From Euborellia annulipes (Eukaryota; Arthropoda; Insecta; Dermaptera; Anisolabididae), in NCBI GenBank assembly GCA_023213315.1, contig JAKCPI010003273.1, positions 1 through 64,000 of the forward strand: a stretch of DNA of 64,000 nt, in the 5' to 3' direction. The translations under genes were made by a program, and so were the position numbers. How positions within the stretch are numbered: position 1 is the first letter of the stretch; every line of letters starts with the position of its first letter. Under the pieces are notes generated by a model, which was not told the DNA's origin, searched no databases, and saw only the letters and a list, made by a program, of their open reading frames with translations. This document shows positions 1,483 through 62,814 of this stretch, piece by piece.

Positions 1483-1704
1483 ATTCGCAGGGACTTTGCA
1501 GCCAGGAGATTAAATAAAAAAATCTTTTATTTAATTTTTATTTGCCGACGTTTCGACTTCATCAGGGCAATTGCAATGTATAATTGAGACTAATATTTGC
1601 CCTGATGAAGGTCGTGATTGGCGACCGAAACGTCGGCAAATAAAAAATTAAATAAAATATATTTTTTTTTAATTTAATCTCCTGGCTGCAAAGTCCCTGC
1701 GAAT
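1483..1704. repeat. Hammerhead-bearing inverted-repeat element 1
   Basis: The outer arms pair almost perfectly (ATTCGCAGGGACTTTGCAGC at 1483 against its complement ending at 1704) and continue through GCAGCCAGGAGATTAAATAA. The right arm carries an intact hammerhead motif (1595-1641). The left arm carries its antisense with stem II deleted. The same arm sequence recurs at 47862-48008, so the two belong to one subfamily. Confidence 0.8.
1595..1641 (+). ncRNA. Type I hammerhead ribozyme motif
   Basis: Seen: stem I ATTTGCC (1595-1601) pairs over 7 bp with GGCAAAT (1635-1641). CTGATGA is at 1602-1608. Stem II GGTCG/CGACC closes a 7-nt loop. GAAACGTC is at 1627-1634, where ACGT is self-complementary and stands in for stem III. 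All conserved core positions of the hammerhead are present. Known: such loopless stem III motifs, thought to work as dimers, occur in Penelope-like elements and metazoan retrozymes. Predicted cleavage follows the C at 1634. Activity is inferred. Confidence 0.8.
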
Positions 1705-2310
1705 TTAGAATAAACGTTGGTGTTAAAATTTTTGCTTATAGGATAGAGATGTTAAAATTAATTAACGCTGATTTCAAAATTTTAAGATGAATTTAATTTT
1801 TCAATTATATTGACACCACATTTATTTGTAGACAATGAAATCATAAATTAAAAGTGGAGGTGTTATTTAAAAAAAAAAATACCTCTTTGCATAATTTATT
1901 AATTGCTAATTTCGTTAAATAAATAATTAATGAGCAATTAGTTAAAAAAAAAAAAAAAGAAGGCGGAGTCTTTTTGATACATTTCAAGTTTTTATCTCTT
2001 TCTGGCAATAAAATAAAATAAAATAATATTACTAATCATGCAATAGTGTGTGTATGCAACATGTGTGTGGGTGTTGAATGGACTATTTGCCTGTTCATGT
2101 GGATCGAAATCGAAAATCAATCGAGAGTGAGAAAAATTCAATTCCCACAGAGATGAGGATGCTCCAGAAATTTTCCAGTTAGGTTTTTAGCAAAAATTAT
2201 TTATTCTCAATTGATGAGTCCTCGATTGGAATGCAGAAATCTCTTCTTTTTTTTTTTTTTTTTGTTCTTTTGAGTGGTTTATAAGCTAAAAATGTGGTTT
2301 TGATGCATTT
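1705..2310. other. AT-rich spacer without recognised gene
   Basis: Contains A and T homopolymers and a short unique stretch around 2090-2220. Nothing coding is supported. Confidence 0.3.
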
Positions 2311-2860
2311 TTACTTTCTCTTAGCCTATATATGAAATATATAGGAGAGAAAGTATTGCGATCATGTCAAAAATTCGATGTCGAGATTTTGATGGATATA
2401 CATGTTTTGAGGTCCCCTGAGTCCAAAAAAGTGGGTCCCGCAAATTGGTCTGTGTGTATGTATGTGTGTGTGTGTATGTGTGTCTGTGTGTGTGTCTGTG
2501 TGTGTGGACAGATTTTTAGCATGAAGGAGTTGAGCTAGCGGATTGAAATTTTATATTTAACTTAGGTACCTTTGAAGAATCTCAAAATAAGCTTTTGAAC
2601 AAAATCGGCCAAAAAGTACTAGTACTTTACTGATGTACTTTTTCAGTTTTTTTCGATTTTCTCAAAATTCCCTCCAAGGATTTTTTTTAAAATTCATAAA
2701 TGAACTATTTTTTAGATGCTCTTTAAAATGTATATTCTCATTTTGCCGTTGAAATCTTCTGAAGACCACTTTACTCTTGTTCTTCATAGGAAAGATAGAA
2801 ATGGTTGCCATGGTTTTAGAATGATTTCAAGTATTAAGATATGCTACCAAATGATCTATT
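2311..2860 (+). repeat. Copy of the palindromic-end element, right end missing
   Basis: Begins with the TTTACTTTCTCTTAGCC end hairpin, passes through AAAATTCGATGTCGAGATTT, a (TG)n tract at about 2444-2507 and AAGTACTAGTACTTTACTGA, then the CTTCATAGGAAAGATAG segment. It is collinear with the full copy at 6428-7131 but lacks the 92-bp terminal palindrome. Confidence 0.8.
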
Positions 2861-3012
2861 AATATAAGATATTGCCAGGAGGCCCTAGACATCTTAAGAC
2901 CTTGACTAAAATTTTCGAAACTTGGTGATAATAATTAGAATAATGGGATCAAGTCATAAATTTAAATCTTTTTCTTTTTATTAGATTAAAAATCAATTAT
3001 TATTTAAATTCC

Positions 3013-3535
3013 CATTTTTTTTTACTTTCTCTTAGCCTATATATTTTAAATTTATTTGTGTCTTTAATTGTTTCAAAGAAAACATATATGTCTCTCTCTC
3101 ACTTGCAAACATTATCGTCTCTCTCTAGCCTTGGTCTCTCTCTACTCTTTTTAAATTCCCTTTCCACCTTATCTTCGCATAGGCCTAATGTTAATTTCCT
3201 ATAGGGATTTGTATGTTAATTTCGATTCAAAAGGGGGTCCCCTTTAGAACTTTTTACGCATTTAAAATTTTTTTTTCCAATTCTTATGAAATTTTGTATT
3301 TATTTACGATTCTATATTGTGTATAAAATGTCCAAATATGAGATTAAAATTTTTAAAAATAACCATAGTTTATTTGAAGCAGTCAACATTTAAAATGCAA
3401 GTTTGAAACTAAGGTGCTATCGGAAACTAAATATATCTCGACACAAAAATCTGGTGTGACCAACACAGTGCGCAACTTTCTCTTACCGAAGGGTAAGAGA
3501 AAGTTGTGTGCTGTGCGCCAGTCACACCAGATTTT
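3013..3535 (+). repeat. Palindromic-end element, second subfamily
   Basis: Starts with TTTACTTTCTCTTAGCC and ends in the CTGGTGTGAC palindrome at 3451-3533. Its middle (AACCATAGTTTATTTGAAGC, then AAACTAAGGTGCTATCGG) differs from the 6428 copy but matches, inverted, 10350-10560. A TCTC-rich microsatellite sits at 3090-3145. Confidence 0.7.
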
Positions 3536-4150
3536 TTTTCATTATTAAATAAAATTGACAGCAAAGCGAGAGATAATCTTGATTGATAGGCAAAATATGA
3601 ATAAATTTAAAATTTAAAATAAACAAATGGGTGTTAAAAAGTAAAAAAAAGCGTTAAAAAATGCTATTCTCTAAACAAAGTTTTAACAGCGACGTTAACA
3701 TGTTGCTTTTATTTCAAAGATATCAAAATCATAACCTTACTTTTTAGGTTAAGGACGCTATTTTTATTTTAAATACGACACGACTTTAAAATATTAAAGC
3801 CACCCCCTAGACATGGCTTTAATTTTTAACACAATTTACTAAATGTTAACGCTTTGGCTTTAAATTTTTGTTTACAGAATAGCTATTTGTGGCAAGGAAG
3901 TGATTTTGAATAGCATTTTTTTAACGCTTACTTTACTTTTTAACACCCATTTGTTTATTTTAAATTTTAACGTCTGTTTTTAGAGAATAAACCTGTTTAT
4001 GTGTTAAAAATAACAAAAGTGATCAAATTCGACAAAAATCTTCTGATTAACATAGGCCGTAAAAGCAAGCCACAAGGGCCGAGATTGAAGCCTTGATGTT
4101 AGGCAACCAAAGTCGCCATAAGAGGCGTAGCCTTTCCCCTTAAGTTGCAT
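3536..4150. other. Inverted-repeat AT-rich region
   Basis: AAATTTAAAATAAACAAATG at about 3606 and its complement near 3945-3965 bracket a block rich in GTTAAAAA and TTTTTAAC words, suggesting one decayed inverted-repeat element. No coding potential. Confidence 0.4.
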
Positions 4151-4153
4151 TTA

Positions 4154-5082: not shown

Positions 5083-5520
5083 ATAATATAAGTGGGCACA
5101 TTGCTTTCGGCCCCACAAAAAATTAAAATTATCAATAGAGTTTTTATAAAATTCATTTAAAAATGTTAAATTTTATTCACTTGACCTAGTTAAAATTAAA
5201 TATTCCAATTTGTTATTAAAAGATAATCTTCATAAAAATAGAAACTAATACAAATATAAATTTATATATTAAGAGGAAATTATTTGACTTCCCTCATTAT
5301 TTGATTGTATCTTTAACTATAAAAACAACGTTTTTAAATATTATAAGAAATTTTAAAACCTGTATATATATCATCATATTATCTAAATAGAATACATAGA
5401 ATAAATAATGTCATCTATGTATCATTATACAGACTTAACTCTCTCTCATTAGAACGTAAGTCTTGGTATAAACTAAAATTGTCATCTTTATTTTGAAATC
5501 AATACACTATATATGTATTC
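5083..5520. other. AT-rich spacer
   Basis: No gene or recognised repeat. It leads directly into the hammerhead at 5531. Confidence 0.3.
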
Positions 5521-5530
5521 TATTTTTAGT

Positions 5531-5575
5531 GTTCACTGAAGATGGGTGAATAAATTTTACCCGAAACGTCTGAAC
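5531..5575 (+). ncRNA. Type I hammerhead ribozyme motif (single copy, no mirrored arm)
   Basis: Stem I GTTCA (5531-5535) pairs with TGAAC (5571-5575). CTGAAGA is at 5536-5542. Stem II GGGT/ACCC encloses an 11-nt loop. GAAACGTC is at 5563-5570. A TTGGCTGC motif follows 29 bases downstream, as in the other elements, but no antisense partner is seen upstream. Confidence 0.75.
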
Positions 5576-5689
5576 GTTCACAGAGTATCGAGTGTTTTTC
5601 ATTTTGGCTGCCTGCATTTCCATATCCTATTTACATATAATTCCAGCCATTAAATATTATTATTAATAATATCTATTGAGGGGGGGGGG

Positions 5690-5822: not shown

Positions 5823-6427
5823 ACCTTGTAGCTGAGATTTTTTCTAATAGCACAGTTTAGGACGTGTATTTCCATTAAACATGACCGAGAAAATAAATAA
5901 AAAGAGATCCTCCCACTCGGCTCTCAAAACAAGTCTCTCAGTTAAAATACAAATTAAATAAATAATATTAAATTTCAAAATATTTCCTTTGATCCGGAAA
6001 TGTTTCTCTTAATGGAATTAATGAGTGCATGTTTCTGTTGGTCTCCCCCCTCCCCTCCACTCGATTTCGTTTTTTTAGCCGACAAGATAAAAGAGTTTAT
6101 AGTATTAATCAAAGTCATTTAAATCTTGTAACCGTCTCCTAACTAGTTTACCCTCCCTACTTAGCGGCCTTTATTATATAAATATTCTTTTTTTCTCAAT
6201 GATTTTTAATTACCATACCAAGACAGGTAGCAGAGGGGGGGGGGCAGGGGGGGGGCGATTAATCTCTCCCTCCTTTGAGTATTAATTTCATTCTGGTAGC
6301 AATTAACAGATTGTGTGGGTTTGTTTGAGATCGACACTTTTGTGGACGCCTACTTCTTTTCTTCTTTCATTTGTCACTTGGCTAAAAATTACATTCGTGT
6401 AAATAGTCACGTGCGCGATCCAGTTTT
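5823..6427. other. Mostly unique spacer with G/C homopolymers
   Basis: Contains a G run at 6234-6255 and C-rich patches near 6048. No open frame or repeat family is supported. Confidence 0.3.
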
Positions 6428-6605
6428 TTTACTTTCTCTTACCTATGTATATATGTAATATATATATATAGAGAAAGTATTGGTTTCATGTCAAAAATTC
6501 GATGTCGAGATTTTGATGGATCTTCACGTTTTGAGGTCCCCTGAATCCAAAAAAGTGGTTTTCGCGACATGGTCTGTCTGTGGGTGTGTGGGTGGGTGGG
6601 TGTGT

Positions 6606-6638
<33 letters not shown>

Positions 6639-7131
6639 CAATTTTAAGCATGAAGGAATTGAGCTATGAGGCTGAAATTTTATATTTAAGTTAAACACCC
6701 CCCGGGACCGACAAAATAAGCTTTTAATCAAAATCGGCCAAAGAGTACTAGTACTTTACTGATGTACTTTTTCAGTTTTTTTCGATTTTCTCAAAATTCG
6801 CTCTAACGATTTTGATTAAAATTCAAAAATCAATTATTTTTTAGATGCTCTTTCAAATGTATATTCTCGTTTTGCCCTCAAAATTGTTTGAAGCACACTT
6901 TACTCTTGTGCTTCATAGGAAAGATAGGAGAAATGGTTGCCATGGTAACAAAATATAAATATTTTCCCATACTTATAAATTTTACACCTAAATTCAAATA
7001 TTTCCTACTGCCGGGAACTAAATACATGTCGACACAAAAAATCTGGTGTGACAAGCACAGTACACAACTTTCGATTACCGAAGGTAAGAGAAAGTTGTGT
7101 GCTGTGCGCCAGTCACACCAGATTTTTTTTA
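6428..7131 (+). repeat. Full-length palindromic-end element (reference copy)
   Basis: One end is the hairpin TACTTTCTCTTACCTAT...ATAGAGAAAGTA. The other (7036-7128) is a palindrome of about 92 bp running from AAATCTGGTGTGAC through TACCGAAGGTA to GTCACACCAGATTTT. Between them lie a (TG)n-rich tract (6570-6640), AGTACTAGTACTTTACTG and ATGGTTGCCATGGTAACA. It encodes no transposase. A near-complete inverted copy is at 58198-58872. Class unknown; hairpin ends and A/T flanks allow a Helitron-like or other rolling-circle MITE, without proof. Confidence 0.85.
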
Positions 7132-7254
7132 AACAATTTTGTTTTTTAATAACAAATTACAACTAATGGGATTATCATCATCGTTATTTATAAAGATATA
7201 TTTATTTGAAGAGATTATATTAATATTAAATAATCTGGTGTGACTGATTGCACA

Positions 7255-8279: not shown

Positions 8280-8520
8280 TAGTAGAAGGAGAATAAAAGA
8301 GAGAGCAGCTAGTTATATTTTCTTTTATTAAACACTCTGTGCTGACGTTTCAGTCCTGTTTAGGGCCATCCTCAGAGCATTAGGGTTGTCATCATAAATT
8401 TCAATTTTGAAATTGAAATTTATGATGACAACCCTACCTAAACAGGACCGAAACGTCAGCACAGAGTGTTTAATAAAAGAAAATATAACTAGCTGATCTC
8501 TTTTTATTCTCCTTCTACTA
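8280..8520. repeat. Hammerhead-bearing inverted-repeat element 2
   Basis: Near-perfect arms of about 115 bp meet at a centre near 8405 (CAATTTTGAAATTG). The outer ends read GAGAGCAGCTAGTTATATTT and its complement. The left arm carries an antisense hammerhead (8340-8379). The right arm has lost the CTGA segment. Confidence 0.8.
8340..8379 (-). ncRNA. Type I hammerhead motif, weak stem II
   Basis: Read on the minus strand: TGCT, CTGAGGA, a stem II region with CCT/AGG pairing, GAAACGTC, AGCA. Stem I is 4 bp. The core is intact, but the closing pairs of stem II next to GAAA are mismatched, so activity is doubtful. Confidence 0.6.
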
Positions 8521-11740: not shown

Positions 11741-11746
11741 GGATTA

Positions 11747-12044
11747 TCTAGGTTCAATAAAACTCTCAGAATAAGACGACGTTTTGGCCTGAATTTATTT
11801 GGCCATCTTCAGTTATTGGGAATTATACACATAGTGCAAGTGCACATGTGATCAAACCAGGACTCGTCCATAATAAAATTTATTTGCTTCAAACAAAATT
11901 ATATGGCTCCTGTGCCCAAGCCCAGAGAAAGACCAGGTTTGATCACATCTGCACTTGCATTATGTGTATAATTCCCAATAAATGAAGATGGCCAAATAAA
12001 TTCAGGCCAAAACGTCTTATTCTGGGAGTTTTATTGAACCTAGA
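11747..12044. repeat. Decayed hammerhead-type inverted-repeat element
   Basis: The arms TCTAGGTTCAATAAAACTCT and its complement enclose antisense and sense remnants of the core. The GAAA position reads AAAA on both arms (GGCCAAAACGTC). CTGAAGA survives on the left arm only, so it is predicted inactive. Confidence 0.7.
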
Positions 12045-12547
12045 TAAAACAAAAAGTATGCCCAAAAATTCAAATAATTCAAAAATTTGCCAAGAGATGT
12101 CAGAATGGTAGCTAATAATATTTAATGCATTTGGTTGATTTTCGTTGATCTTTTAACAATAAATACTTTATAAATGTTATTATATATTATGTATAATTTA
12201 TAAAAGGATAAAAATATATAAATATAGGCCAAAAGGGGATATGTGATTAATAATAACAATAAATTCATTTTTAAATTAAAAAAAAAAATTAAAGATTATT
12301 GGGACAGATTGTTTTTTTTTGTATTTGCTTGATAACAAAAAAATTAATTACGATAATTTTTTAATAAGTCATTAAACAAATTATAGCTCGATGACCCAAT
12401 AATCTCTTATGAATTTAATTCATTTAAAAAAAACCCGCATTGAAAAATTCCTTATAATAGTCTAGTTTTTTTTTAAGTACTTTTATACGTCGCTTCTGAA
12501 CCCCCTTAATAGCTTATAATATCGTATCGTTTATTTTTTTATTTCAG

Positions 12548-15840: not shown

Positions 15841-15887
15841 CAGTGATGGCGAACTTATGCACGTGTCAAAAAGTTTCGCCATCCCTG
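15841..15887 (+). mobile_element. 47-bp hAT-like mini-element
   Basis: The ends CAGTGATGGCGAAC and GTTTCGCCATCCCTG are flanked by ATCTAGGC at 15833-15840 and 15888-15895. At this size it retains little more than its TIRs. It interrupts the left flank of the hammerhead-type element that follows. Confidence 0.75.
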
Positions 15888-15892
15888 ATCTA

Positions 15893-15940
15893 GGCAGAAG
15901 TTTCGGGTGACAATAACGGTTGCCATCTTCAGTCCCAATG
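15893..15940 (-). ncRNA. Hammerhead motif, partly decayed
   Basis: Minus strand: CTGAAGA (15926-15932), a long stem II region, and GAAACTTC (15897-15904), where the expected G of ACGT is replaced. The mirrored remnant at about 16038-16064 reads CCAAAACGTC. Likely inactive. Confidence 0.45.
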
Positions 15941-16109
15941 TAAGTTTTTTTTAAGGTTTTCCTTAATATAGTAATGTACTTACAAGTACTTGCTTTGCAT
16001 TAGTATATTATTTGACAGGGAAACCTTAATTTCATTGAAGTAACCGTTAGGGTGACCAAAACGTCTGCCTTGATTAAAGTATAAAGATGTTCAATAAAAC
16101 GCTATTTTT

Positions 16110-21381: not shown

Positions 21382-21437
21382 CCTGAACCCCGAACAAGCC
21401 CCGGTCCTTCTTCCCGCCTGTTTATCGTCAGTCTGTC

Positions 21438-28474: not shown

Positions 28475-28868
28475 GAATAAAAAATAGCTGAATTCGCTCT
28501 TTCTTTATTCCTTACAACAAATTTCTTTACGTTTTGCTGTCAGCAGACCACAAGCTGAATGTTGTCGCTGTTTTTTTTTTTTTTATTTTTTTTTACTGTA
28601 TATACGGAAATTTATCAGGATACGGGATCTAACTCGGCAAGCATTAACAACAACGAAAGCCTGAATGAACTTTTTTCGAAACGATATTGTTGATAAACGG
28701 AGGCTTTTGTTTTTGGCTCCCTCCCATTATACCAGTGGTTTCCAAACTTTAGGTTACAACGCCTCCCTTAAAAATATTTTATCATACAACGCCTCCCCTC
28801 CCCCTGGATTTTGTAAAAAAAAATACAAAAACAAAAATGTTTAATGCTAAAAGATATGAATTTATATT

Positions 28869-29122
28869 AAAGCCGAGTCAAAAAAATCCAAGACGTATGC
28901 AGGCAAAATTATTTTTTTTATTGTGACGTTTCGGCCACTGGCTTAGGCCATCCCCAAAGCCAGAGGTGAGAATAAATGAAATTTTCATTTTCATTCAAAA
29001 TTAAAATTTCATTTATTCTCGCCTCCGGCTCTGAAGAGGGCTTAGACCAGTGGGCCGAAACGTCACAATATAAGAAATAATTTTGGCTGCATATGTCTTG
29101 GAATTTTTTTTGACTCGGCCTT
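28869..29122. repeat. Hammerhead-type inverted-repeat element 3
   Basis: The arms AAGCCGAGTCAAAAAAATCC and its complement pair over about 110 bp. The right arm has CTGAAGA (29031-29037) and GAAACGTC (29057-29064) with a mismatched stem II. The left arm has an intact stem II (GGCC/GGCC) but lost CTGA. The terminal motif TTGGCTGC is at 29081. Confidence 0.75.
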
Positions 29123-29323
29123 AACAATACTTTCAGCCACAAAGATATTACCTCACAATATATGTTAAACTGGAAAGTGTAATATTATTTTTTTAGCTTA
29201 TTCCTAACAAAAAAACCAGCAATCATTTAGAAAATCGCTCGCTTCGGATAATATTCGCGCCATTAGATGATCGCAATACTTTCTTTCTATTTATTTCACA
29301 TATGGACCCTGATATGCAAATGT

Positions 29324-30112: not shown

Positions 30113-31045
30113 TGGAAACTAAAAAAAAAATCAACGAATATTTTTATAAAATAACTCACACAAGCTGAAAGAAAATTGTAAAGGCTTATCCGGTTCAAAT
30201 TCTTAAATAGAACGTGTGGCAGGCCAGCCCCTGGATGCTTAGGCTACCCGTTTTCTCTCTCTCACTAAAGCGGCGGTGCTAAAAAAAACATGAAATCGGA
30301 TTTGGCAGATTTATTTTCTAATGAAAATTGAAAAACTAGATTCTGAACCAACAGTAACAAATTACTGTTGCGTAAAGGTAATATAATAATAGAAAATTAA
30401 TACCACTCGTGATATATTTATCTTGGTAAAGCCGAAATGGCCAGCCGGCTGGCCAGGCAGCCGGGAGCAGAGGCAGGTAAACAGTGCTCTATTAATTTTC
30501 TAAAGAGATCAAACACTGGTTATAAATAACAAAATTCAAGAATGCCGGGAGGGAGGGGGGGGGCAGAAGAATAATTAATAATTGTATGCCCGGGCTTTTG
30601 TGATTAATTGGGGCCGGCTCAATCTCAATGACACGAGAAGAGTCGCTCTTGGACCAGGAGGGGCTTCTCTCTCTTTTTTTCTTTTTTTAATGGGATGTCA
30701 CGAGCGTTTAATTGACTCTCTCTCTCTGACCATGGGAAAAGAGTCTGTAACACCGGTTCGGCAATATCAACTGACTACTTCAATACCAACCATCATCAAC
30801 ATCTAATGAATTTAAGTGGATTGAGAAATCCAGTTCAAATTTACAACTAGAGGGGGGGAGATAAAAAAAAAAAATGTAGTAGCATTCAAATAATGATTAT
30901 TAAGAAATTAGCAAAGCTTTGGAAATAAAACGATCTTTACTCGCAAGATAAACATTAAAAGGTTAGATCTTTTTTACTTTCTCGTATAGCATGTAAAGAG
31001 AAAGTATTGTAATAGCTCAAAAAAAATTCAAATTCGAGATTTTAA
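30113..31045. other. Partly unique region, possible regulatory DNA
   Basis: Includes an 18-bp perfect palindrome TGGCCAGCCGGCTGGCCA (30438-30455) and a GC-richer unique block at 30580-30640 (GCTTTTGTGATTAATTGGGG). Neither lies in a long open frame with splice signals. 30972-31030 starts another TTTACTTTCTC end. Confidence 0.4.
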
Positions 31046-31123
31046 TTTATTTAAGGATCAGAAAATCTCCAATGACAACGCAGCTAATCTTTTTCAATTT
31101 TTATTTAAGTTGTAAAGTGCCAG

Positions 31124-31163
31124 GGCCAACGTTTCGGTCGCATATAGGACCATCATCAGGGCC
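31124..31163 (-). ncRNA. Type I hammerhead ribozyme motif
   Basis: Minus strand: GGCC, CTGATGA (31153-31159), stem II GGTC/GACC, GAAACGTT (31128-31135), GGCC. Stem I starts with 4 G-C pairs and then opens into an internal loop, as is usual in type I motifs. The cleavage-site base is T instead of C, which is tolerated. Confidence 0.75.
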
Positions 31164-31322
31164 AAGCCATTGTCAAAATATTATTCCTCTTGGTCATATT
31201 GGCCAAAGAAATTATTAACAACGCAACAAATTCAATGACCAAATTATTAGAAACAGTGTCTGAGTTGTTAATAATTTCTTTGACCAATATGACCAAGAGG
31301 AATAATATTTTGACAATGGCTT

Positions 31323-31362
31323 GGCCCTGATGATGGTCCTATATGCGACCGAAACGTTGGCC
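31323..31362 (+). ncRNA. Type I hammerhead ribozyme motif
   Basis: Mirror copy of 31124-31163: CTGATGA 31327-31333, GAAACGTT 31351-31358, stem I GGCC/GGCC. Core and stem II match the left arm, so drift since the inversion is low. Confidence 0.75.
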
Positions 31363-31484
31363 CTGGCACTTTACACTTAAATAAAAATTGAAAAACGATT
31401 AGCTGCGTTGCTCATTGGAGATTTCCTGATCCTTAAATAAATCATATTATCAGCTATACACCTCAATTAAAACGAGATTTTAAT

Positions 31485-37461: not shown

Positions 37462-37662
37462 CGAAAAATAAAACAAAAATCTATTTTTTGTCGAAGTTTC
37501 GGAGTGCCGATCGCACTCTTCATCAGGACAAAAATGATGTCAAGTTGTCAGGTTATTTGACATGGTAGTGTAGCAACGTTTTAACCAATTTATATTTACT
37601 TGAAGATTCTAGTATTTCGAGGTCGAAACGTCGATAAAAAATAGATTTTTGTTTTATTTTTC
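37462..37662. repeat. Hammerhead-bearing inverted-repeat element 5
   Basis: The arms GCGAAAAATAAAACAAAAAT and complement pair over about 40 bp. The left arm has a well-formed antisense hammerhead. The right arm copy has an insertion in CTGA (CTTGAAGA). TTGGCTGC follows at 37666. Confidence 0.75.
37484..37535 (-). ncRNA. Type I hammerhead motif, stem III variant
   Basis: Minus strand: stem I TTTTTGTC/GACAAAAA (8 bp), CTGATGA (37520-37526), stem II GAGTGC/GCACTC, and GAAACTTC (37493-37500). The ACGT palindrome is ACTT here, so dimer pairing would be weaker. Confidence 0.65.
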
Positions 37663-39150: not shown

Positions 39151-39381
39151 CGGGGAATTGCACCGTAGGACAGGGGCGGGCAAAAGCCGGCCCGTGGTCC
39201 GTTGAAAAATCTCTTTTATGCAATTTTGTTGAAATCAGCAGTATTAGTGTGCGTAGTGTACATATAAATAATGAAATATATAAATAATAGCGAGTATTAT
39301 AATTTCGAACAGCCGTAACCATATCCCTACTTTTATGTATGCAACATATTAGGTCTGTTCGATTATAAATAAAATTTAATT

Positions 39382-39439
39382 GCAAGCTCTGATGATGGTC
39401 ATAACCAAGACCGAAACATCGGATCATCCTCAGCTTGCG
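39382..39439 (+). ncRNA. Hammerhead motif, first of a direct pair
   Basis: GCAAGCT precedes CTGATGA (39389-39395). Stem II is GGTC/GACC, then GAAACATC (39413-39420). AGCTTGC at 39432-39438 can pair with GCAAGCT, leaving 11 unpaired bases. A second, diverged motif in the same orientation (CTCAAGATGG...GAAACGTT, to 39492) follows 70 bases on, the only direct pair in the window. Confidence 0.55.
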
Positions 39440-44896: not shown

Positions 44897-45643
44897 CAAC
44901 TAGTAACTAAATATAAAAAGTTTTTCCAAAATATGGCCCGTTTTGACATAATTGGCTTAGAAATGAGCATTCAGATTTGTTTTGAGCTCGCAAAAATTAT
45001 ACAAAGTCACATGATTGTTTCATACCCGATTTTTATTATATTGTGTGTTTAATAAAGAAAATAAATAAATAAATAGAAGAATAGTAAATGTTTAAAGATA
45101 GATTCCAAATTTTTTTCCCCTCTCCTTCAGTCCTCCTTTAAACAAACATGAACAAAAAAAAAAAAATCAAACAAGATAAATTCCAAGATGTCAATCTTTA
45201 AATGATGGGAGAGAGAAGAAATCAAGTGGCTGCTGCAAATTCTTCACCTCCGTGGGAGTCTTTCTTTTTTCTTTCGGTCTTTTTCAAAGATGTCACCAAA
45301 AAAAAAAAAAATTGATAAGAAGAAATTAAAAATTTAATATTCAACAAAAAGCGAATGAATAAATCAATAAAGAATAAAAATTTGACTTCGAAATACGTAC
45401 TTTGAACACAAAATGATAAAATGCTTCCGATTTTTATGAATTTAAATAATATTAAAGGTTTCAGCAATTGGATTTTGTGTTAATTTATTGAAGCAATTAA
45501 AATTATCAGCGAGAAGAGACAGACAAACACCAAAAGAACACAGATACACTCTCAGATATGCACATTCGAAATATGTATATTTATAAGAAAGAGATTTTAA
45601 GAGCAAAAGAATTAGATTTTCGATTTAACTGTGGTTTATTTGT

Positions 45644-45696
45644 GAAAATTACAACGTTTCGGCCACTCATTCTGTGGGCTTCTTCAGGTACATTTC
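45644..45696 (-). ncRNA. Type I hammerhead ribozyme motif
   Basis: Minus strand: CTGAAGA (45681-45687), stem II about GCCCAC/GTGGCC with one mismatch, GAAACGTT (45653-45660). Stem I is TAC/GTA, then an internal loop, then pairing of AAA with TTTTC. Confidence 0.65.
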
Positions 45697-45753
45697 AGCT
45701 AAGATTACAAAGGCTGTTACATCTGTAACAACCTCAATTGAACTGGTTGAGAC

Positions 45754-46032
45754 CAAGGGCGGATACAGGGGGGGGGGGGTAAAGGAGGTAATTACCCCCC
45801 CCCCCCCAAGATTTGAAAAAAATATCTTTTTTTCGAAAAAAAAAAATGTATTTTTAATGTAAAATTTTAAAAATTAATACTTAAAAATTTGATTTGTATT
45901 TATATTCTGGCCAACAAGTACAGAATGCGCCTTTAAATTACCGAAATTACAGAAAAAATAGTGTGCTGTGCGACGAGTCACACCAGATTACCCCCCCCCC
46001 CCCCCCGAGAAACACCTCTGGATCCGCCCTTG
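45754..46032 (+). mobile_element. hAT-like MITE, CAAGGGCGGAT family
   Basis: The ends CAAGGGCGGATAC and GGATCCGCCCTTG are flanked by GTTGAGAC at 45746-45753 and 46033-46040. Inserted in the left arm of the hammerhead element. Confidence 0.9.
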
Positions 46033-46370: not shown

Positions 46371-46983
46371 AGGGCTGGGAAAAATAATCGATTAATCGTT
46401 TGTATACCGATTATTTTCTTAAAAAATAATCGATTATTATAAAAAAAATAATCGATTAATCGGGAAACCGATTGATTAATCGGAAATAATCGGAATAATC
46501 GGAGAACCGATTAATCGAAAATAATCAGAATAATCGGAGAACCGATTAATCGGAAATAATCTATTATTTTTTCATAACTGATTTTAGAGAAATAATCGGT
46601 GTTTTTTTTAACATTGATTGTATCCAAATAATCGATTGAGGTGAATATATATTCCAACTCGTTTCAAAATAAGAAATTTTTGGTAGCCAAATGTCTTAAA
46701 TAAAATCATTATAGATATAGATTATTTTCGATTAATTGGTTCTCCGATTATTCTGATTATTTTCGATTAATCGGTTCTCCGATTATTCTGATTATTTTCG
46801 ATTAATCGGTTCTCCGATTATTCCGATTAATCGGTTCTCCGATTATTCCGATTATTTTCGATTATCAGGTTCTCCGATTATTCCGATTATTTTCGATTAA
46901 TCGGGAAAGCGATTAATTGGAATAATCGATTATTTTTTATAATCGAAAATCGATTATTTTTTTCAATAATCGAACACCCCTTA
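46371..46983 (+). mobile_element. hAT-like MITE built of ATTAATCG-type words
   Basis: The ends TAGGGCTGGGAAAAATAATC and AATAATCGAACACCCCTTA are flanked by GTCTCAAC at 46363-46370 and 46984-46991. The interior is an inverted array of ATTAATCGG/CCGATTAAT words with repeated GGTTCTCCGATTATT units. Inserted in the right arm of the hammerhead element. Confidence 0.9.
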
Positions 46984-47040
46984 GTCTCAACCAGTTCAAT
47001 TGAGATTGTCACAGATGTAACAGCCTTTGTAATCTTAGCT

Positions 47041-47093
47041 GAAATGTACCTGAAGAAGGCCACAGAATGAGTGGCCGAAACGTTGTAATTTTC
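47041..47093 (+). ncRNA. Type I hammerhead ribozyme motif
   Basis: CTGAAGA (47050-47056), perfect 6-bp stem II GGCCAC/GTGGCC, GAAACGTT (47077-47084). Stem I TAC/GTA is followed by an internal loop and GAAA/TTTTC pairing, the layout expected for loop-loop contact in type I motifs. Among the best preserved here. Confidence 0.8.
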
Positions 47094-47131
47094 ACAAATA
47101 AACCACAGTTAAACCGAAAATCTAATTCTTT

Positions 47132-47860
47132 TACTGCGATATCGAATTTTTGACATGAAACCAATACATTATACATATTAACAATTATATAGGTAAGAGA
47201 AAGTAAAAAAGAAACGAGAGTAAAAAGAATAAAAATGTATTCATTACAAATTCTTTATCGAGTCTCTTTGATAAATTTTTTATTTCTTAAATTTATGTAT
47301 ATAATTGCAATTATAATCAAAAAAGAGAGATATAAAATGAAAAACGGAAAAGTTTTTTTTATGAATTTCTTGAATATTAAATTGGATCATAAATAAAAAT
47401 GAATCGAATAAAAATTGATGAGAAAGTAAATAAACATTAATCAACGAACGTGAGAAAAATTGATAAATACCAAATGCCAAAAACATTAACGAATCCCAAC
47501 CAAATGGATGACAAAAAAACAAAAAAATTAAGAAGAAGAGATGATGATGATTGAGGAATGGAAAGTAAAACGTCATAACAAAGACAATCGCTATTTATTA
47601 GAGTAATAAAAATTTATTTGATAAAAGAACAAAAACAGAGAAATTATTTTAATTTTTTTTTTTTCTTGATTAATGTCGTAAAAATTTGCATATTTTTATT
47701 ATTATCAGGGCATTAGAGCCTTTGATTCGACCCTAAAACAGCACAAAAACCGAGAGTACCCCCACTATCGAGAACAGCATGTATATTTTTTTATTATCGC
47801 CTGAAGAAAAACAAATTGCGTTTCAGCCTAAGTGATAGGCAACCAAAATGACACGTTCTC
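47132..47860. other. AT-rich spacer
   Basis: A palindromic-element end fragment (TAGGTAAGAGAAAGTAAAAA at about 47190) and otherwise unique AT-rich DNA. A long minus-strand open frame here (47280-47576) is of low complexity and is not supported. Confidence 0.35.
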
Positions 47861-47861: not shown

Positions 47862-48008
47862 CTCAGGGAATCGAAGGACACTTTGCAGCCAGGAGATTAA
47901 ATAAAAATTTGCCCTGATGAAGGTCGTGACAGACGACCGAAACGTCGGCAAGTAAAAAATTAAATAAAAATTTTTTTATATAATCTCCTGGCTGCAAAGT
48001 GTCCTTCG
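47862..48008. repeat. Compact hammerhead hairpin, same subfamily as 1483-1704
   Basis: The arms TCGAAGGACACTTTGCAGCC and complement pair through GGAGATTAAATAAAAATTT. The single hammerhead forms the loop region instead of being present on both arms. Confidence 0.85.
47907..47953 (+). ncRNA. Type I hammerhead ribozyme motif
   Basis: Stem I ATTTGCC/GGCAAGT (one T-G pair), CTGATGA 47914-47920, stem II GGTCGT/ACGACC, GAAACGTC 47939-47946. Stem I and core match the 1595-1641 motif. Stem II is one pair longer and perfect. Confidence 0.85.
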
Positions 48009-48114
48009 GTTTCCTGATTAAATCTCCACACAGCCATAACACATTATAAAAACATGTTCTCTCTTTAATTCATTTCTTTGAGGGGTTGTCTAACAGGTAG
48101 GCCTATGTTAATAA

Positions 48115-49890: not shown

Positions 49891-49892
49891 TA

Positions 49893-50099: not shown

Positions 50100-50497
50100 T
50101 ACCTAGGTAGGATTCTAGTTTTTTTTTTCCAAATTCGGGATCTAATGCCAGTCCAGACGATTGTGACTTTGTCAAGACTTCTACAGTGGTTTCGTCAGAA
50201 AGGTCGAGTGGAGAACTCTGATTAGAAAGTCGTTAATGGGGTGCGATTCTATCAAAAAGGGAGAAAATGAACGAAATCAAGTGAAGGCAGTATATGTTTT
50301 GAGATAACGTGTTGTGTTGATTGTAAATAAATAGTTGAAATGTAACGCTGTGGTTTCATTCCTCTCTTTAAAAACCTCAAAACAAACATAGCATGAGCAA
50401 AAACAAAGCGTTTGAGCAAAGAGAAAAAAGTTACATTATAAATATCAACCGTTGGTACTAAGTGAAACATTATATAAAATTCACCAGGAAGTTCGAT

Positions 50498-50850: not shown

Positions 50851-51075
50851 ATAAGGATAGCGGGGGGCAGCCAAGAAAAATTAAATACAATCAATTTCTA
50901 TCAGATTTTCTTAATTTGATTGTCGACGTTTCGGACGCCAGTCGCGCCCTTTTTTGACAATTGTTTGTCCTGAGGAAGGGCGCGACTGGCGTCCGAAACG
51001 TCGACAATCAAATTAAGTAAATCTGATAGAAATTGATTGTATTTAATTTTTCTTGGCTGCCCCCCTATCCTTATC
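50851..51075. repeat. Hammerhead-bearing inverted-repeat element 7
   Basis: Arms of about 95 bp run from ATAAGGATAGCGGGGGGCAG to its complement, through GCAGCCAAGAAAAATTAAAT. The right arm has an intact motif. The left arm antisense copy has lost CTGA. Confidence 0.85.
50965..51007 (+). ncRNA. Type I hammerhead ribozyme motif
   Basis: Stem I TTGTC/GACAA, CTGAGGA 50970-50976, stem II GGGCGC/GCGTCC (one G-T pair), GAAACGTC 50995-51002. Confidence 0.75.
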
Positions 51076-55362: not shown

Positions 55363-55415
55363 AGTAGAATGAATGAGAGGGCAGCTAGTTATATTTCAAT
55401 TTATTAATAAACCAG

Positions 55416-55456
55416 GGGCGACGTTTCGGTCACATATGGGACCATCTTCAGGGCTA
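55416..55456 (-). ncRNA. Type I hammerhead motif, weak stem I
   Basis: Minus strand: CTGAAGA (55445-55451), stem II GGTC/GACC, GAAACGTC (55420-55427). Stem I pairs poorly. The flank GGGCAGCTAGTTATATTT is the same terminal sequence as at 8303. No mirrored arm. Confidence 0.6.
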
Positions 55457-55499
55457 CAAATGATGAAAAAGAACATTTAACAGATAGATAGTGTCGTAA

Positions 55500-55830: not shown

Positions 55831-55929
55831 AATCATTTACATAAATAAAAGTGTAAAATAGCTGTTATTTATTAAACTTAAGGAAGGTAAATCTGCAGCC
55901 AGGAGAATAAAAAACTATTTTAATTTCTT

Positions 55930-55972
55930 TTGCTCGACGTTTCGGACGCCAATCGCGTCCTTCTTCGGGACC
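55930..55972 (-). ncRNA. Hammerhead motif with a core mutation
   Basis: Stem II GGACGC/GCGTCC is perfect and GAAACGTC (55936-55943) is kept, but CTGAAGA reads CCGAAGA (55962-55968). The change at the invariant U4 should abolish cleavage. Confidence 0.55.
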
Positions 55973-56099
55973 AAAGATTGTTAAAAAGCACACATGGATT
56001 TTGTTATGGCATGTATAAAATATTTGAACAATATTGACAAAGGGATCTTTTTGTGTACGAGAAGAGCTCTCTGTGCTTTATTTTTTCCAATCGGATTGA

Positions 56100-57872: not shown

Positions 57873-58197
57873 AGTCTAAGATGCTGATAAAACTTGAAAA
57901 AAATACTCGATATTTTCTGATATCGATACTTTTCTTCCGATATAAGTACAGTACAAATTAAACTGAGGACACTTTATTTCGATACCACATCCCTAATTAC
58001 ATTTTTTTACAAGAGACTCCCTGTCCCTTGATAGAGGTTGAATTCAAAAAGTTTAGCTGGATACCCCAAGCCTTTTAAATAAATACTAAAAAGTAAAAAT
58101 ATAATCTCATTCATTTGAAGAAGGAAAATAGTTGAACTCGTAGCTGAAACCCTCAATATAGAACCCTACTGCTAATAAGTCTAACACAATTCATGTA

Positions 58198-58872
58198 AAA
58201 AAATCTGGTGTGACGGCGCACAGCACACAACTTTCTCTTACCTTCGGTAATCGAAAGTTGTGTACTGTGCTGTCACACCAGATTTTTTGTGTCGACATAT
58301 ATTTAGTTCACGACAGTACGGAACATTTGAATTCAGATGTAAAATTTATAAGTATGGGAAAATATTTATATTTTGTTACCATGGCAACCATTTCTCCTAT
58401 CTTTCCTATGAAGCACAAGAGTAAAGTGTGCTTCAAACAATTTTGAGGGCAAAACGAGAATATACATTTGAAAGAGCATCCAAAAAATAATTGATTTTTG
58501 AATTTTAATCAAAATCGTTAGAGCGAATTTTGAGAAAATCGAAAAAAACTGAAAAAGTACATCAGTAAAGTACTAGTACTTTTTGGCTGATTTTGATTAA
58601 AAGCTTATTTTTCCGGTCCCGGGGGTGTTTAACTTAAATATAAAATTTCAACCTCGTAGCTCAATTCCTTCATGCTTAAAATTGAACACACACACACACA
58701 GACACACAGACACACACACAGACAGACCATGTCGCGAAAACCACTTTTTGGATACAGGGGACCCAAAACGTGAAGATCCATCAAAATCTCGACATCGAAT
58801 TTTTGACATGAATCCAATACTTTCTCTCTATACATATATTACATATATACATAGGTAAGAGAAAATAAAAAA
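58198..58872 (-). repeat. Full-length palindromic-end element, inverted
   Basis: Near-complete reverse complement of 6428-7131: terminal palindrome 58201-58288, then GTTACCATGGCAACC, a (CA)n tract at about 58687-58720 and the closing TACATAGGTAAGAGAAAATA. Confidence 0.85.
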
Positions 58873-59207
58873 ATAAAGATTTATAACAAGGAAAGATGGC
58901 AAGCAAAATAAAAGTCAAACTGAAATCGAAATTCCTATCTAAGAAAAAAAAAAGAGAATTTGCGAAGATCATTAAAATTTTCTTAAATAATTCCATTTTG
59001 TTTTTGTTGACATTTTGAATGTAATATAAAATCTCTTAACTCTATTTAACTGACATCCTTATGAGACTTATTTCTTGATTTTTGTATTTTTTATTTTTTT
59101 TTTTTTTAAGAGATTTCATTTCTATTGGCATTCAGAAAATGTCTTTTCTATTCGGATCGAAAAAAAAAAAAAAGAAAATGTAAAATGTGTTTAGGAACTG
59201 AACTGAC

Positions 59208-59546: not shown

Positions 59547-60400
59547 ATCTACACAGGTACAACTTATATCTCAACTTGTCATCGTAATATCCTCAATGAT
59601 TGACATTAATTTATCACCTTTTCGGCTAAAATATGAGAGAAATTCTATATCCGATTTTTTTATTTTAAAATAAAGTAATTAACATACCGTAATATTGGGT
59701 TGTTATCGTAAAATGTGTTAAGTAAGGCCTACCAATTTTTTAATCAAAAAACTTGACACAAATAAAACAAAATTTTGATTAATTTTCTGATCTATGGGAA
59801 TGATATTGGATCAATTCTTCTCTTTTTAATATTATTAAATCAAAATTTTGTTCTCCCCCTTTCGTGTGACAAATTTCAACAATTTTCGAAGGTTTACTTT
59901 GAAGTTTGCAAGGTGGACGTGCAGATTTTTAAATAATTTTAAACAATTATTTTCCAGAAATTTTATTATACTTTAAATTACAGGACATTAACATTTTATT
60001 CCAATTGCATTATTTTATTTTATACAATATTTGTCTTAATACGAAATTTTATAAATAGCCAATATTCTCAATTCCAATCAATATTTTAAAAATAGAGCAG
60101 ATATTATTAAAAATATATAATTACCTAAAATTTCTTTTTTTAAAAATTTCTGAAAAATAATTGTTTAAAATTATTTAAAAATCTGCACGTCCACCTTGTA
60201 AACTTCAAAGTAAACCTTCGAGAATTGATGAAATTTCTGCTTGAGCTGTTTCTTAAATAGACAAATTTCAATATTGATAACCCCAAAATCCAATGGAAGT
60301 TAAAAGCAGCTTGGAAAAATAATAATCTCGTATGGCGCCGCCTTCAGCCCTGGCGCCTTGATGCTAGGCATCAAAGGCATCGTAACCTGGGTCCAGGCGA
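59547..60400. other. Intron sequence with a decayed inverted repeat
   Basis: GTTTACTTTGAAGTTTGCAA (59892) and TTTACAAGGTGGACG-type words pair with 60179-60228, and TTTTAAACAATTATTTTC pairs with 60150-60175, giving an old inverted-repeat element of about 380 bp. Confidence 0.5.
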
Positions 60401-60570: not shown

Positions 60571-60664
60571 ACTTAAATTATACTTTATCCAAGTACCCAT
60601 TTTAAATTTTATATTCAAAATTTTGGATTTTTAATATATATATTTAAATGATATATACCAATGA

Positions 60665-60800: not shown

Positions 60801-60885
60801 TAATTGGTGGATCATCAGACATCAACAATAGCAACAGAAAACAATAATGAAATTTATAAAGGCAGAGATTTTATTTAAAAGTTAC

Positions 60886-61142: not shown

Positions 61143-61249
61143 CTGAGAACAAAAAAAAAAAAACAAATTTATTAAAATTTGATCTGTTGAATTAATTTAA
61201 AAGAAAAATACAACAATTTGCAATAGAATAAAAATCTTCTATCTGCTGT

Positions 61250-61270
61250 CACACCAGATTTTTTGTCATA
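61250..61270. repeat. Fragment of the CTGGTGTGAC tip
   Basis: TGTCACACCAGATTTTTTGT only. Confidence 0.5.
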
Positions 61271-61312
61271 TTTAACTTCAGTTTATCAGAAGCTTACAAA
61301 TAATTGGACCCT

Positions 61313-61553
61313 GTTATGCATTAGTGCGTCAAGCGCCAATAAAAATTAAAAATTGAGTTAAGCACTGTATATTGTTTCAAATGCTATAATTAATAGTATT
61401 TTTTTATGAAATATGTCCTAAAAAAATTTATATTTAATGTTACTTGCAAAATTGACAAAAAAAAATTATATATAATCCAATGAAAGCAAAAAACTTTAAT
61501 GTTAATTTACTCAAAACTCGGGGGGCTTGAAACAATAATGCGTAACAGGGTCC
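61313..61553. repeat. GGACCCTGTTATGC terminal-inverted-repeat element
   Basis: TGGACCCTGTTATGCATTAG and TGCGTAACAGGGTCCA ends, with GCGTCAAGCGCCA and CTTGAAACAATAATGCG inside, about 240 bp. The closest relative of 53577-53830. Confidence 0.8.
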
Positions 61554-62770
61554 AATTAATCAGAAGTAAATATTTTCATTTTAGAACCTTGGCAACAATT
61601 TCTCCGATAATTTTGGACGCACAAATTTGGATTCAGGTTCCCTCAGCATCATCGTATTTTTAGCGAGATCGTTATGCTTTCTCTATGTCTATACTAATCT
61701 GTAAAAGACAAAATGTGTTTGTCTGACGTTTTGTTTGTTTGTGCGCATAGACACCGGAATCTACTGGCCGGATTTTCATAATTTGTTTTTTAATAGGTAG
61801 GGAATTTACCAGGGGGTGGTTTAAGGTTATCATCAATACAGGGTAGGATATAAAATAATAATATTTAACCCATGATAATTCTCTTCAAGTCTGAACGTCT
61901 ATATATAGATCTTCTTCTTTCTTTGCCGTTATTATTCCCGCAGTGCGGGGTCGGCGGTAAAGGGGGGTCTGGCGCCTGTTGAAAATATAGAAGGAAAGGA
62001 CTGACATGTAAAGAATAGAAGGACTGCCAGTCCCAGCTCGGGTAGCTCGTGGTCGCCACGTACCCACAAGATGTGGGGGATAACCGAGACGGAGTTCGAT
62101 GGTTTTTTCTTTTAATAAAATTGAAATAAAAAAAAAAGTATTATATCTCAGTAAAGTACTCAAAATATCCCAAAAACAAAACCTAGCTTAATTTCATATT
62201 GTTACTTAACATTTGAAATAAATCAGACTGAATTTTTAAGAAAATTGGAAAAAACTAAAAAAGTATTTGGGGTTTTTGGGAAATAGTACATGTGAATTTT
62301 GTATATAAAATTTTAAGTAGGGGGGCAGCAAATTAAATTTTGCCCCCCTCCCCCTAAAAATCTCCTAGTTCCGGCCGCTATGTTGAGACGATTGCAATTT
62401 TCTCAACTCTTTGCGAAAAAGTGCCACTCAGATTTTGTATTTTTTTTGGTTACAAAGCATCTATGAGGATAAAATCTTTTGCAAAAATAGAAGTGCCTCA
62501 TAAGCAATATTTTTTAAATTCATATTAGTATATTCCCTGCTTTTAATTTTCCAGAGAGCAGGGTGCTCTCTATATAATTCTATAAATTTTGTGACAAAGT
62601 CTTTTGAGAATACTCAATACATATCCATGTCCTAAAATCGTGTATTATACTCGGCGGGATAAAACTTGCCAACTATGTTGTCGAGTCTCAGATTTCCTAT
62701 ATTATAATATAGGCTCGGCAACATTATATATATAACATATATTATATGACAGGGACACTTTAAGAAACTT
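61554..62770. other. Spacer with unknown GC-rich repeat
   Basis: 61915-62100 (TTCCCGCAGTGCGGGGTCGG, GGTCTGGCGCCTGTTG) is shared in part with 23737-23815. 61690-61810 and 62300-62370 look like transposon debris. No exon supported. Confidence 0.4.
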
Positions 62771-62779
62771 AGATTGGCC

Positions 62780-62814
62780 CTGAAGATGGCAACTGTTATA
62801 GTACCCGAAACGTC
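62780..62814 (+). ncRNA. Hammerhead core with poor stems
   Basis: CTGAAGA 62780-62786 and GAAACGTC 62807-62814 are intact, but stem II closes with only two or three pairs and stem I does not pair. Adjacent to the hAT-like composite. Confidence 0.45.

What the first reader, a model, noticed from the sequence alone, without database searches (positions are those of the whole stretch)
1595..62814. A scattered population of type I hammerhead ribozyme motifs on both strands
At least twelve places match CTGANGA + stem II hairpin + GAAAC + self-complementary ACG(T/C) with a base-paired stem I in the better copies (1595, 5531, 8340-, 31124-, 31323, 37484-, 45644-, 47041, 47907, 50965, 55416-, 39382). 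Five or more decayed ones also occur. Stem II sequences differ between elements but keep pairing (GGTCG/CGACC, GGCCAC/GTGGCC, GGGCGC/GCGTCC, GAGTGC/GCACTC), which is covariation evidence for RNA function. The ACGT in place of stem III implies action as dimers or multimers, as proposed for Penelope-like elements and metazoan retrozymes. No Penelope-type reverse transcriptase is in the window, so these would be non-autonomous.
Basis: partly seen in the sequence, partly recalled or inferred. Interest (0 to 1): 0.88.

Follow-up and report, generated by a model that had tools for sequence, protein, structure and literature searches.

The report
Mirror-image Penelope insertions with ribozymes
This genome holds thousands of copies of a motif predicted to let RNA cut itself, many of them paired in short mirror-image insertions; at least one such family matches the repeated ends of a Penelope-like jumping gene in the same genome, and the insertions were likely copied from that gene's spliced or unspliced RNA at both cut ends of the target DNA.

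Summary
All 12 listed places match a covariance model; a descriptor finds 13 window hits against 0.08 expected; genome-wide one exact pattern has 20,468 matches, its reversed control none. (1) The core is not canonical: one extra base follows CUGANGA (47 of 51 hits, 13 of 13 in the window), and Rfam's hammerheads do not match. (2) 46 of 64 strict motifs lie in head-to-head inverted insertions; 24 of 38 insertions have a target duplication of about 12 bp and 24 of 38 a tail on one side only, the published anatomy of Penelope-like elements. (3) The genome encodes such elements; L071 has RT and GIY-YIG domains between repeats carrying this motif and is kin to a window insertion. (4) In five families an intron ends 2-6 nt before the core. 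Short copies exist spliced and unspliced, and both arms agree in 28 of 28 pairs. Ribozymes in Penelope-like elements are known; the splice junction inside stem I and the arm agreement I did not find in print, key papers not being held. Self-cleavage was not tested.

The parts
1451..1703 (.). short head-to-head insertion, family GGTCG..CGACC; motifs 1592-1644 (+) and a shortened one 1537-1575 (-); tail on the left; 12-bp target duplication TTTAGAATAAAC on both sides
   Evidence: palindrome 1483-1704, motifs, tail box, duplication; exact ends inferred from the duplication
5456..5529 (+). retained intron GTAAGT..TTTTTAG, 74 nt, ending 6 nt before the ribozyme core (unspliced copy)
   Evidence: spliced relative in L028 (exon-1 end 9 of 12 letters alike)
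5526..5580 (+). hammerhead-type motif of the unspliced copy; no inverted partner found
   Evidence: 48.9 bits
8275..8525 (.). head-to-head insertion; motif 8334-8385 (-), partner arm lacks the 5' part of the motif; 12-bp duplication ATATCACACCAT; tail box on the left
11744..12047 (.). old head-to-head palindrome with two decayed motifs (11778-11812 -, 11972-12026 +); no clear duplication, no tail box
15887..15942 (-). decayed motif, single
   Evidence: 19.1 bits
28433..28484 (+). motif, no inverted partner found, ACAT instead of ACGT
28867..29124 (.). head-to-head insertion of the family of the coding element L071; motifs 29021-29074 (+) and 28915-28967 (-, decayed); spliced form (intron absent) in both arms; tail box on the right; no clear duplication (score 8)
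31045..31442 (.). head-to-head insertion, 92% self-identity; motifs 31317-31368 (+) and 31118-31169 (-); both arms spliced; 12-bp duplication CGAGATTTTAAT; box seen on both sides
37483..37536 (-). motif, single, strong stems I and II, ACTT
39379..39430 (+). motif, no inverted partner found, ACAT
45602..45759 (-). left arm of a long head-to-head insertion; motif 45643-45697 (-)
   Evidence: 96% identical, inverted, to 46978-47135; no duplication or tail box seen
46978..47135 (+). right arm of the same insertion; motif 47040-47094 (+)
47863..48017 (.). head-to-head insertion; motif 47904-47956 (+); the left arm stops at the stem I / predicted cleavage-site sequence; tail box on the right; 9-bp repeat GTTCTCTCT
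50851..51074 (.). head-to-head insertion, 91% self-identity; motifs 50960-51012 (+) and 50915-50965 (-); tail box on the right; duplication TTATTKTCATATCT
55410..55461 (-). motif, no inverted partner found
55926..55978 (-). motif, diverged
   Evidence: 45.5 bits
62770..62824 (+). decayed motif
   Evidence: 24.7 bits

Best explanation
The motifs are small hammerhead-type sequences, most likely all from Penelope-like retroelements and predicted but not shown to self-cleave, and most of those examined sit in the arms of short head-to-head insertions that were likely made by reverse transcription of element RNA started at both cut ends of the target. Shown here: inverted arms with the motifs pointing outward, a target duplication of about 12 bp in most insertions, one arm ending at a first site and the other 19-37 nt further on (the tail), and a coding element with RT and GIY-YIG domains whose terminal repeats carry the motif and match one short family. 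Also shown: in five families an intron ending 2-6 nt before the ribozyme core, absent from many short copies at its GT..AG ends, and the same spliced or unspliced state in both arms of the pairs looked at. Inferred: the element protein cuts both strands; one end primes copying at the tail site and the other at the inner site of the same RNA, or of RNAs from one locus; the two copies meet at their 5' ends. Inferred: splicing completes stem I, and cleavage works through paired ribozymes (ACGU with ACGU in place of stem III), probably helped by the element protein as published for PAc.
For: 20,468 exact pattern matches against 0 for the reversed pattern. Orientation: 17 of 18 neighbour pairs within 1 kb among the 100 places listed are head-to-head; 46 of 64 strict motifs have an inverted upstream partner, outer end 43-132 nt past A9, median 95. 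Tail box on exactly one side in 24 of 38 insertions, both 2, neither 12, background 6% per flank; the box was defined after looking at these flanks. Direct repeat of score 10 or more in 24 of 38 against 3.4% in permuted flanks; in 21 of these 24 it lies within 6 nt of one arm end and 19-37 nt from the other. 118 GIY-YIG matches in the genome, 150 of 710 candidates scored. L071: 822-aa frame with RVT_1 35.4 bits and GIY-YIG 26.8 bits between direct repeats holding the same motif, 53.8 bits each (the second repeat runs off the contig end); homologous to L036 2016-2340 (91% over 152 nt) and window 29028-29159 (74%). Introns in five families, spliced counterparts held for four; the last 12 letters of exon 1 agree in 12 (F2), 7 and 11 (F3, two arms), 8 (F4) and 9 (F1) of 12. 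Family F2: 733 copies; of the 100 listed 56 spliced, 40 unspliced, 4 unclear; 10 of 10 head-to-head pairs agree. Family F3: 744 copies; of the 100 listed 81 spliced, 16 unspliced, 3 unclear; 18 of 18 pairs agree (a 19th dropped as unclear), and 15 of 18 share the exon-1 subtype against 3.3 expected, 0 of 20,000 random pairings; subtypes were defined from the same list. Position 17, not required by the scan, is never G (0 of 61); on the motif strand G-U exceeds A-C (stem II pairs 5-6, 23 to 1, summed from the table; stem I pairs 1-6, 38 to 19). PMC11167929 (main-text section read, and passages): a Penelope-like protein cuts and extends both strands, starts at two internal sites, and its hammerhead is cut 26 bp after a start codon at stem II, which fits the extra base.
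Against: Fourteen of 38 insertions lack a clear duplication and 12 lack the tail box; the first duplication test, with shorter flanks, was null. Seventeen of 64 strict motifs have no inverted partner within 1.7 kb and one has it downstream. A relaxed scan is less clean: of 60 neighbour pairs within 800 bp 30 are head-to-head, 12 ++, 11 +- and 7 --, though 44 hits appear in one Markov control against 151 observed. Only one short family was tied to a coding element by sequence; of the three other elements fetched, L068 and L069 have weak motifs (24.5 and 16.5 bits), L070 none in sense near its ORF, and RVT_1 in L069 is under Pfam's cut-off. The extra base breaks the canonical hammerhead core, and Rfam does not match. 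Splicing does not strengthen stem I in F5 (-2.5 both ways); in F1 contiguous pairing is longer unspliced (8 against 6) though the duplex energy is better spliced; in F3 the whole fold is slightly better unspliced (-18.9 against -17.6); the spliced window copy at 29021 has only one contiguous stem I pair. Truncations at the predicted cut site are seen in only a few arms (by eye). L064 has arms differing by a 7-nt deletion that recurs elsewhere, which hints at two templates or a later deletion. Fetched loci were chosen by an exact pattern, so the extra base, stem II pairs 1-2 and ACGT are biased there; the window is not.
Confidence: 0.78

Rival explanations
1. The palindromes come from self-priming: one cDNA folds back and copies itself, as proposed for Adineta Penelope elements.
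For: Palindromes with variable centres; arms share splicing state and mostly subtype; PMC3846280 (passages read) favours self-priming on an antisense template.
Against: Copying arm 1 back to the target would give both arms the same outer end, yet in 21 of the 24 insertions with a clear duplication one arm is 19-37 nt longer. Spliced copies point to a sense RNA template.
Confidence: 0.15
2. Metazoan retrozymes: non-autonomous tandem repeats with type I hammerheads that spread as RNA circles.
For: Type I-like core, low GC, high copy number; retrozymes are thought to use Penelope machinery (PMC7761336 passages).
Against: Close pairs are head-to-head in 17 of 18 cases, not tandem; stem III is missing; arms stop at fixed outer sites with a one-sided tail in most; one family matches the repeats of a coding Penelope-like element.
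Confidence: 0.04
3. DNA transposons (foldback or MITE-like) whose terminal inverted repeats happen to hold a hairpin motif.
For: Inverted arms and target duplications.
Against: Spliced and unspliced forms of one family need an RNA stage; one arm is regularly longer; centres vary; match to an RT element. No transposase was sought.
Confidence: 0.03
4. The hairpin is kept as a landing site for the element protein, not as a ribozyme.
For: The core has an extra base; in PAc, mutations that kill the ribozyme leave insertion unchanged and natural RNA ends at the cut site were not seen (PMC11167929).
Against: Position 17 is never G in 61 copies with different stems although the scan left it free (the core letters themselves were required by the scan and prove nothing). 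PAc RNA is cleaved when its protein is present.
Confidence: 0.2

Closest known systems
Small hammerhead variants of Penelope-like elements (Cervera and de la Pena 2014; Lunse et al. 2017; neither paper is held; known here from passages of reviews PMC6155905 and PMC7761336, and recall)
   Same: Hammerhead core without stem III, in pseudo-LTRs of Penelope-like elements, thousands of dispersed copies in animal genomes, expected to act as dimers
   Different: I could not check whether the extra base after CUGANGA, the intron next to the core, or the head-to-head layout are described there
PAc, Poseidon element of Anolis (PMC11167929, main-text section read)
   Same: Cut 26 bp after a start codon at stem II (fits CUGANGAUG), two internal RT start sites making a tail, both target strands cut and extended, terminal repeats with the motif
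   Different: PAc starts copying inside its ORF; in L071 the start sites inferred lie about 70-100 nt before the first ATG of the frame; a word search of the PAc paper finds introns only in its reference list
Adineta vaga Penelope families (PMC3846280, passages read)
   Same: Inverted pseudo-LTRs head-to-head, optional 31-bp tail on one side, 8-10 bp target duplications, introns kept
   Different: There very low copy and self-priming on antisense template proposed; here 20,468 exact motif matches, duplications of about 12 bp, and spliced copies that point to a sense template
Metazoan retrozymes (PMC7229834, passages read)
   Same: Type I hammerhead, short non-coding repeats
   Different: Retrozymes are tandem and have loop contacts or a short stem III; these are inverted pairs without stem III

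Membership tests
Penelope-like element (Penelope/Poseidon type) | single ORF with RT and GIY-YIG endonuclease | tested here: met
   in the genome, not in the window: L071 and L068 have both domains over Pfam's cut-offs; L070 RVT_1 over and L069 RVT_1 under the cut-off, their GIY-YIG only by the genome search
Penelope-like element (Penelope/Poseidon type) | pseudo-LTRs with a hammerhead motif | tested here: met
   L071: direct repeats 330-689 and 3280-3631 (contig end), motif hits 554-606 and 3505-3557, 53.8 bits each; weak or absent in the other three fetched
Penelope-like element (Penelope/Poseidon type) | inverted head-to-head repeats with an optional one-sided tail | tested here: met
   tail box on one side in 24 of 38, both 2, none 12
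Penelope-like element (Penelope/Poseidon type) | short target site duplication | tested here: met
   24 of 38 against 3.4% permuted
Penelope-like element (Penelope/Poseidon type) | RT groups with Penelope-like RTs in a tree | not tested
   only homologues listed (best named hit Coccinella septempunctata, 36%)
Hammerhead ribozyme, type I | core CUGANGA and GAAA with NUH cleavage triplet | tested here: met
   core letters present but required by the scan; position 17, left free, C 50, T 10, A 1, G 0 of 61
Hammerhead ribozyme, type I | stem II directly after CUGANGA | tested here: not met
   one base between in 47 of 51 hits, 13 of 13 in the window
Hammerhead ribozyme, type I | stem III | tested here: not met
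   only ACGT (9 of 13 window hits), self-complementary between two copies
Hammerhead ribozyme, type I | Rfam hammerhead model above gathering score | tested here: not met
Hammerhead ribozyme, type I | self-cleavage | not testable with these tools
   needs RNA
[quoted passage not shown]
   17 of 18 close pairs are inverted
Metazoan retrozyme | circular RNA | not testable with these tools
   no RNA data

The most novel reading that the evidence does not exclude
In this genome's Penelope-like elements a spliceosomal intron ends 2-6 nt before the ribozyme core, so the ribozyme's stem I is built across an exon-exon junction: splicing arms the ribozyme. Each short insertion is then one RNA molecule, spliced or not, read twice, once from each cut end of the target and from two different start sites, leaving a head-to-head palindrome whose two arms carry the same splice state as a natural barcode of the template.
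Probability: 0.3. Interest if true: 0.8.

Novelty: new variant of a known kind. Interest (0 to 1): 0.62.

Why it matters
How Penelope-like elements insert, why they keep introns and what their conserved ribozyme does are open in the papers seen (PMC3846280, PMC7761336, PMC11167929). Here one genome gives spliced and unspliced copies of the same families side by side (56 and 40 of the 100 listed out of 733 in one family, 81 and 16 of the 100 listed out of 744 in another), a one-sided tail and clear duplications. The tail pattern argues for two separate starts of copying, the spliced copies for a sense RNA template, and the agreement of arms for one RNA or one source locus. That turns three old questions into counts that can be made on existing genomes. 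If stem I depends on splicing, the ribozyme would be one that becomes strong only in mature RNA.

Tried and rejected
Tandem retrozymes and DNA transposons: see rivals. Chance: rejected. The same motif in viral contigs: 19 matches, about what I reckon for chance over that collection (my arithmetic, not a call); not followed. A first test for target duplications with 22-nt flanks found nothing (mean 4.75 against 4.69); with 55-nt flanks, after the tail was noticed, it was clear; this is a second look after a null result. Arms ending at the predicted cut site: only a few by eye, not claimed. TTTNAG before the motif genome-wide gave 1,662 matches, but some are not introns (for instance TTTCAGACATTAA is exon sequence in L064), so it is not used as a count of unspliced copies. 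Literature: phrase and sequence-word searches (listings, then passages of the papers named) found no paper stating that the ribozyme lies on a splice junction. Cervera and de la Pena 2014, Lunse 2017, the Terminon paper and Schostak 2008 are not held, and Arkhipova 2003 was not looked up, so absence in print is not established. PMC3088659 (section 8 and passages) treats natural insertions elsewhere in the hammerhead core; I saw none between A9 and stem II in that text.

Full report
Observation. The letters are there all the same. A descriptor scan (CTGANGA, stem II of at least 4 contiguous pairs, GAAAC) over the window and 200 kb of the same genome gives 51 hits, 13 of them in the window; Markov copies of the window give 0.08 on average. 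Forty-seven of 51 hits have one base between CTGANGA and stem II (46 with nothing unpaired on the 3' side, one with a further base there); 2 have none and 2 have two. In the window it is 13 of 13, the base being A or T in 12. In 61 distinct copies the base is A 31, T 28, G 1, C 1, but the fetched loci were chosen with A/T at this place, so the window is the unbiased part.

Structure. Sixty-four copies were aligned. For stem I (8 pairs) and stem II (6 pairs) 81.5% of cells pair, and the covariation score is 0.600 against 0.210 +- 0.015 in shuffles and at most 0.173 when partners are slid. Four stem II pairs were required by the scan; stem I was not. Position 17, left free, is C, T or A and never G in 61. 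G-U pairs exceed A-C mismatches on the motif strand, as expected if RNA of that sense was under selection.

Copy number. The window lies in an unnamed 903-Mb assembly. The exact pattern CCTGANGAWGG(6-25)CCGAAACGT has 10,205 + 10,263 matches; the reversed pattern has none. Of the 120 relatives listed (220 found) for the genome's Penelope-like protein, the few with a species name are mostly insects, so an insect host is likely but not shown.

Anatomy. Self-comparison shows motifs inside palindromes. Among the 100 places listed, 17 of 18 neighbour pairs within 1 kb are minus-then-plus, that is head-to-head with the motif reading outward, and one is plus-plus. A relaxed scan with many false hits (151 hits, 44 in a Markov control) is less clean: 30 head-to-head, 12 ++, 11 +- and 7 -- of 60 pairs within 800 bp. 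Of 64 strict motifs 46 have an inverted partner upstream, 1 downstream and 17 none within 1.7 kb. These make 36 distinct insertions, 122-1533 bp long; two more from the window were added for the next tests (38 in all). The outer end lies 43-132 nt beyond A9, median 95, while the centres vary. A short box AGCYA, defined after looking at these flanks, lies within 45 nt outside the palindrome on exactly one side in 24 of 38, on both in 2 and on neither in 12, against 6% per flank by chance. A direct repeat of score 10 or more flanks 24 of 38 against 3.4% in permuted flanks; in 21 of the 24 it lies within 6 nt of one arm end and 19-37 nt from the other. Ten of 23 such repeats tabulated are 12 bp, the rest 10-17. 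An earlier test with shorter flanks had failed to see it.

Source. The genome has at least 118 GIY-YIG matches, many in long open frames. L071 (contig 13254) has an 822-aa frame with RVT_1 and GIY-YIG between direct repeats 330-689 and 3280-3631 (contig end) that hold the same motif, 53.8 bits each. Its repeat is 91% identical over 152 nt to the short insertion L036 2016-2340 and 74% to window 29028-29159; a further 72 nt of 5' part match L036 at 99-100%. Reading together, the two start sites lie near L071 681 and 711, before the first ATG at 783. L068, L069 and L070 are other coding elements with weak or no motif in sense.

Intron. Against L071, the short copies in L036 and in the window lack 110 nt that begin GTATGT and end TTTTTTAG. 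The same is seen in F3 (L072 against L067), F4 (L073 against window 31317 and 31118) and F1 (window 5526, unspliced, against L028); F5 (L078) shows the intron alone. The last 12 letters of exon 1 agree in 12 of 12 for F2, 7 and 11 for the two arms in F3, 8 for F4 and 9 for F1. The introns are 74-164 nt and end 2, 3, 2, 6 and 6 nt before C3 in F2, F3, F4, F1 and F5, so stem I runs across the exon junction. Stem I duplex energy, spliced against unspliced: -13.4/-3.1, -5.9/-2.0, -10.8/-4.1, -8.6/-4.5 and -2.5/-2.5 kcal/mol in the same order; the whole fold is better spliced in four of five, but slightly worse in F3. In family F2 (733 copies) the 100 listed places have either the exon-1 end (56) or the intron end (40) before the motif, 4 unclear; 10 of 10 head-to-head pairs agree. 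In F3 (744 copies) the figures are 81, 16 and 3; 18 of 18 pairs agree, one pair dropped as unclear, and 15 of 18 share the exon-1 subtype against 3.3 expected. By chance agreement would be 0.51 and 0.72 per pair.

Mechanism. The anatomy fits what was measured for PAc: the protein cuts and extends both strands and starts at internal sites that define the tail (PMC11167929). Different outer ends of the two arms argue for two starts rather than one cDNA folding back. Agreement of arms argues for one RNA or one source locus. Spliced copies argue for a sense RNA template, at least for these short products. PMC3846280 left this open and preferred an antisense template. The role of the ribozyme is not settled: PAc RNA is cleaved only with protein present, and cleavage is not needed for insertion in vitro.

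Comparison and novelty. Penelope-associated small hammerheads that lack stem III and may act as dimers are known (reviews PMC6155905 and PMC7761336, passages), as are introns in the pseudo-LTRs (PMC11722881, passages), inverted repeats, tails and duplications (PMC3846280). What I did not find, in the searches listed and with the key papers not held, is the intron boundary inside stem I and the splice-state agreement of the arms. I file the find as a new variant of a known kind. Self-cleavage, circular RNA and transcription were not testable.

Noticed in passing
window 18085-22332 (-): LINE-type element: 1124-aa frame with RVT_1 and exonuclease-type endonuclease domains, nearest relative an unnamed protein at 44%, with further frames upstream to 22332
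   Followed up: partly
window 12520-15204 (+): 894-aa open frame of leucine-rich repeats, probably a host gene
   Followed up: partly
window 27875-28110; 36361-37021: tandem arrays with 27-bp and 60/84-bp units
   Followed up: no
window 6424-7143 and 58183-58873: inverted pair of another 0.7-kb repeat, 92% identical, with partial copies at several other places
   Followed up: no
window 49891-50101, 59871-60236, 46449-46829: palindromes of similar size without a recognisable motif; could be old or differently truncated members or other elements
   Followed up: no
L064 910-1369: the two arms differ by a 7-nt deletion before the core; the deleted form recurs elsewhere, in some places in both of two inverted neighbours, so it may be a subfamily, a hot spot or a second splice form
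   Followed up: no
G000, GIY-YIG places: of 11 neighbouring pairs of GIY-YIG matches within about 6 kb on one contig, counted by eye from the list, 9 are minus-then-plus and 2 minus-minus, so coding copies also often lie head-to-head
   Followed up: partly
L046 1188-1440: insertion with a 17-bp imperfect target duplication and no tail box on either side
   Followed up: no
window 37483-37536 (-): motif variant with an A opposite C at the base of stem II instead of a clean one-base insertion, and ACTT in place of ACGT
   Followed up: no
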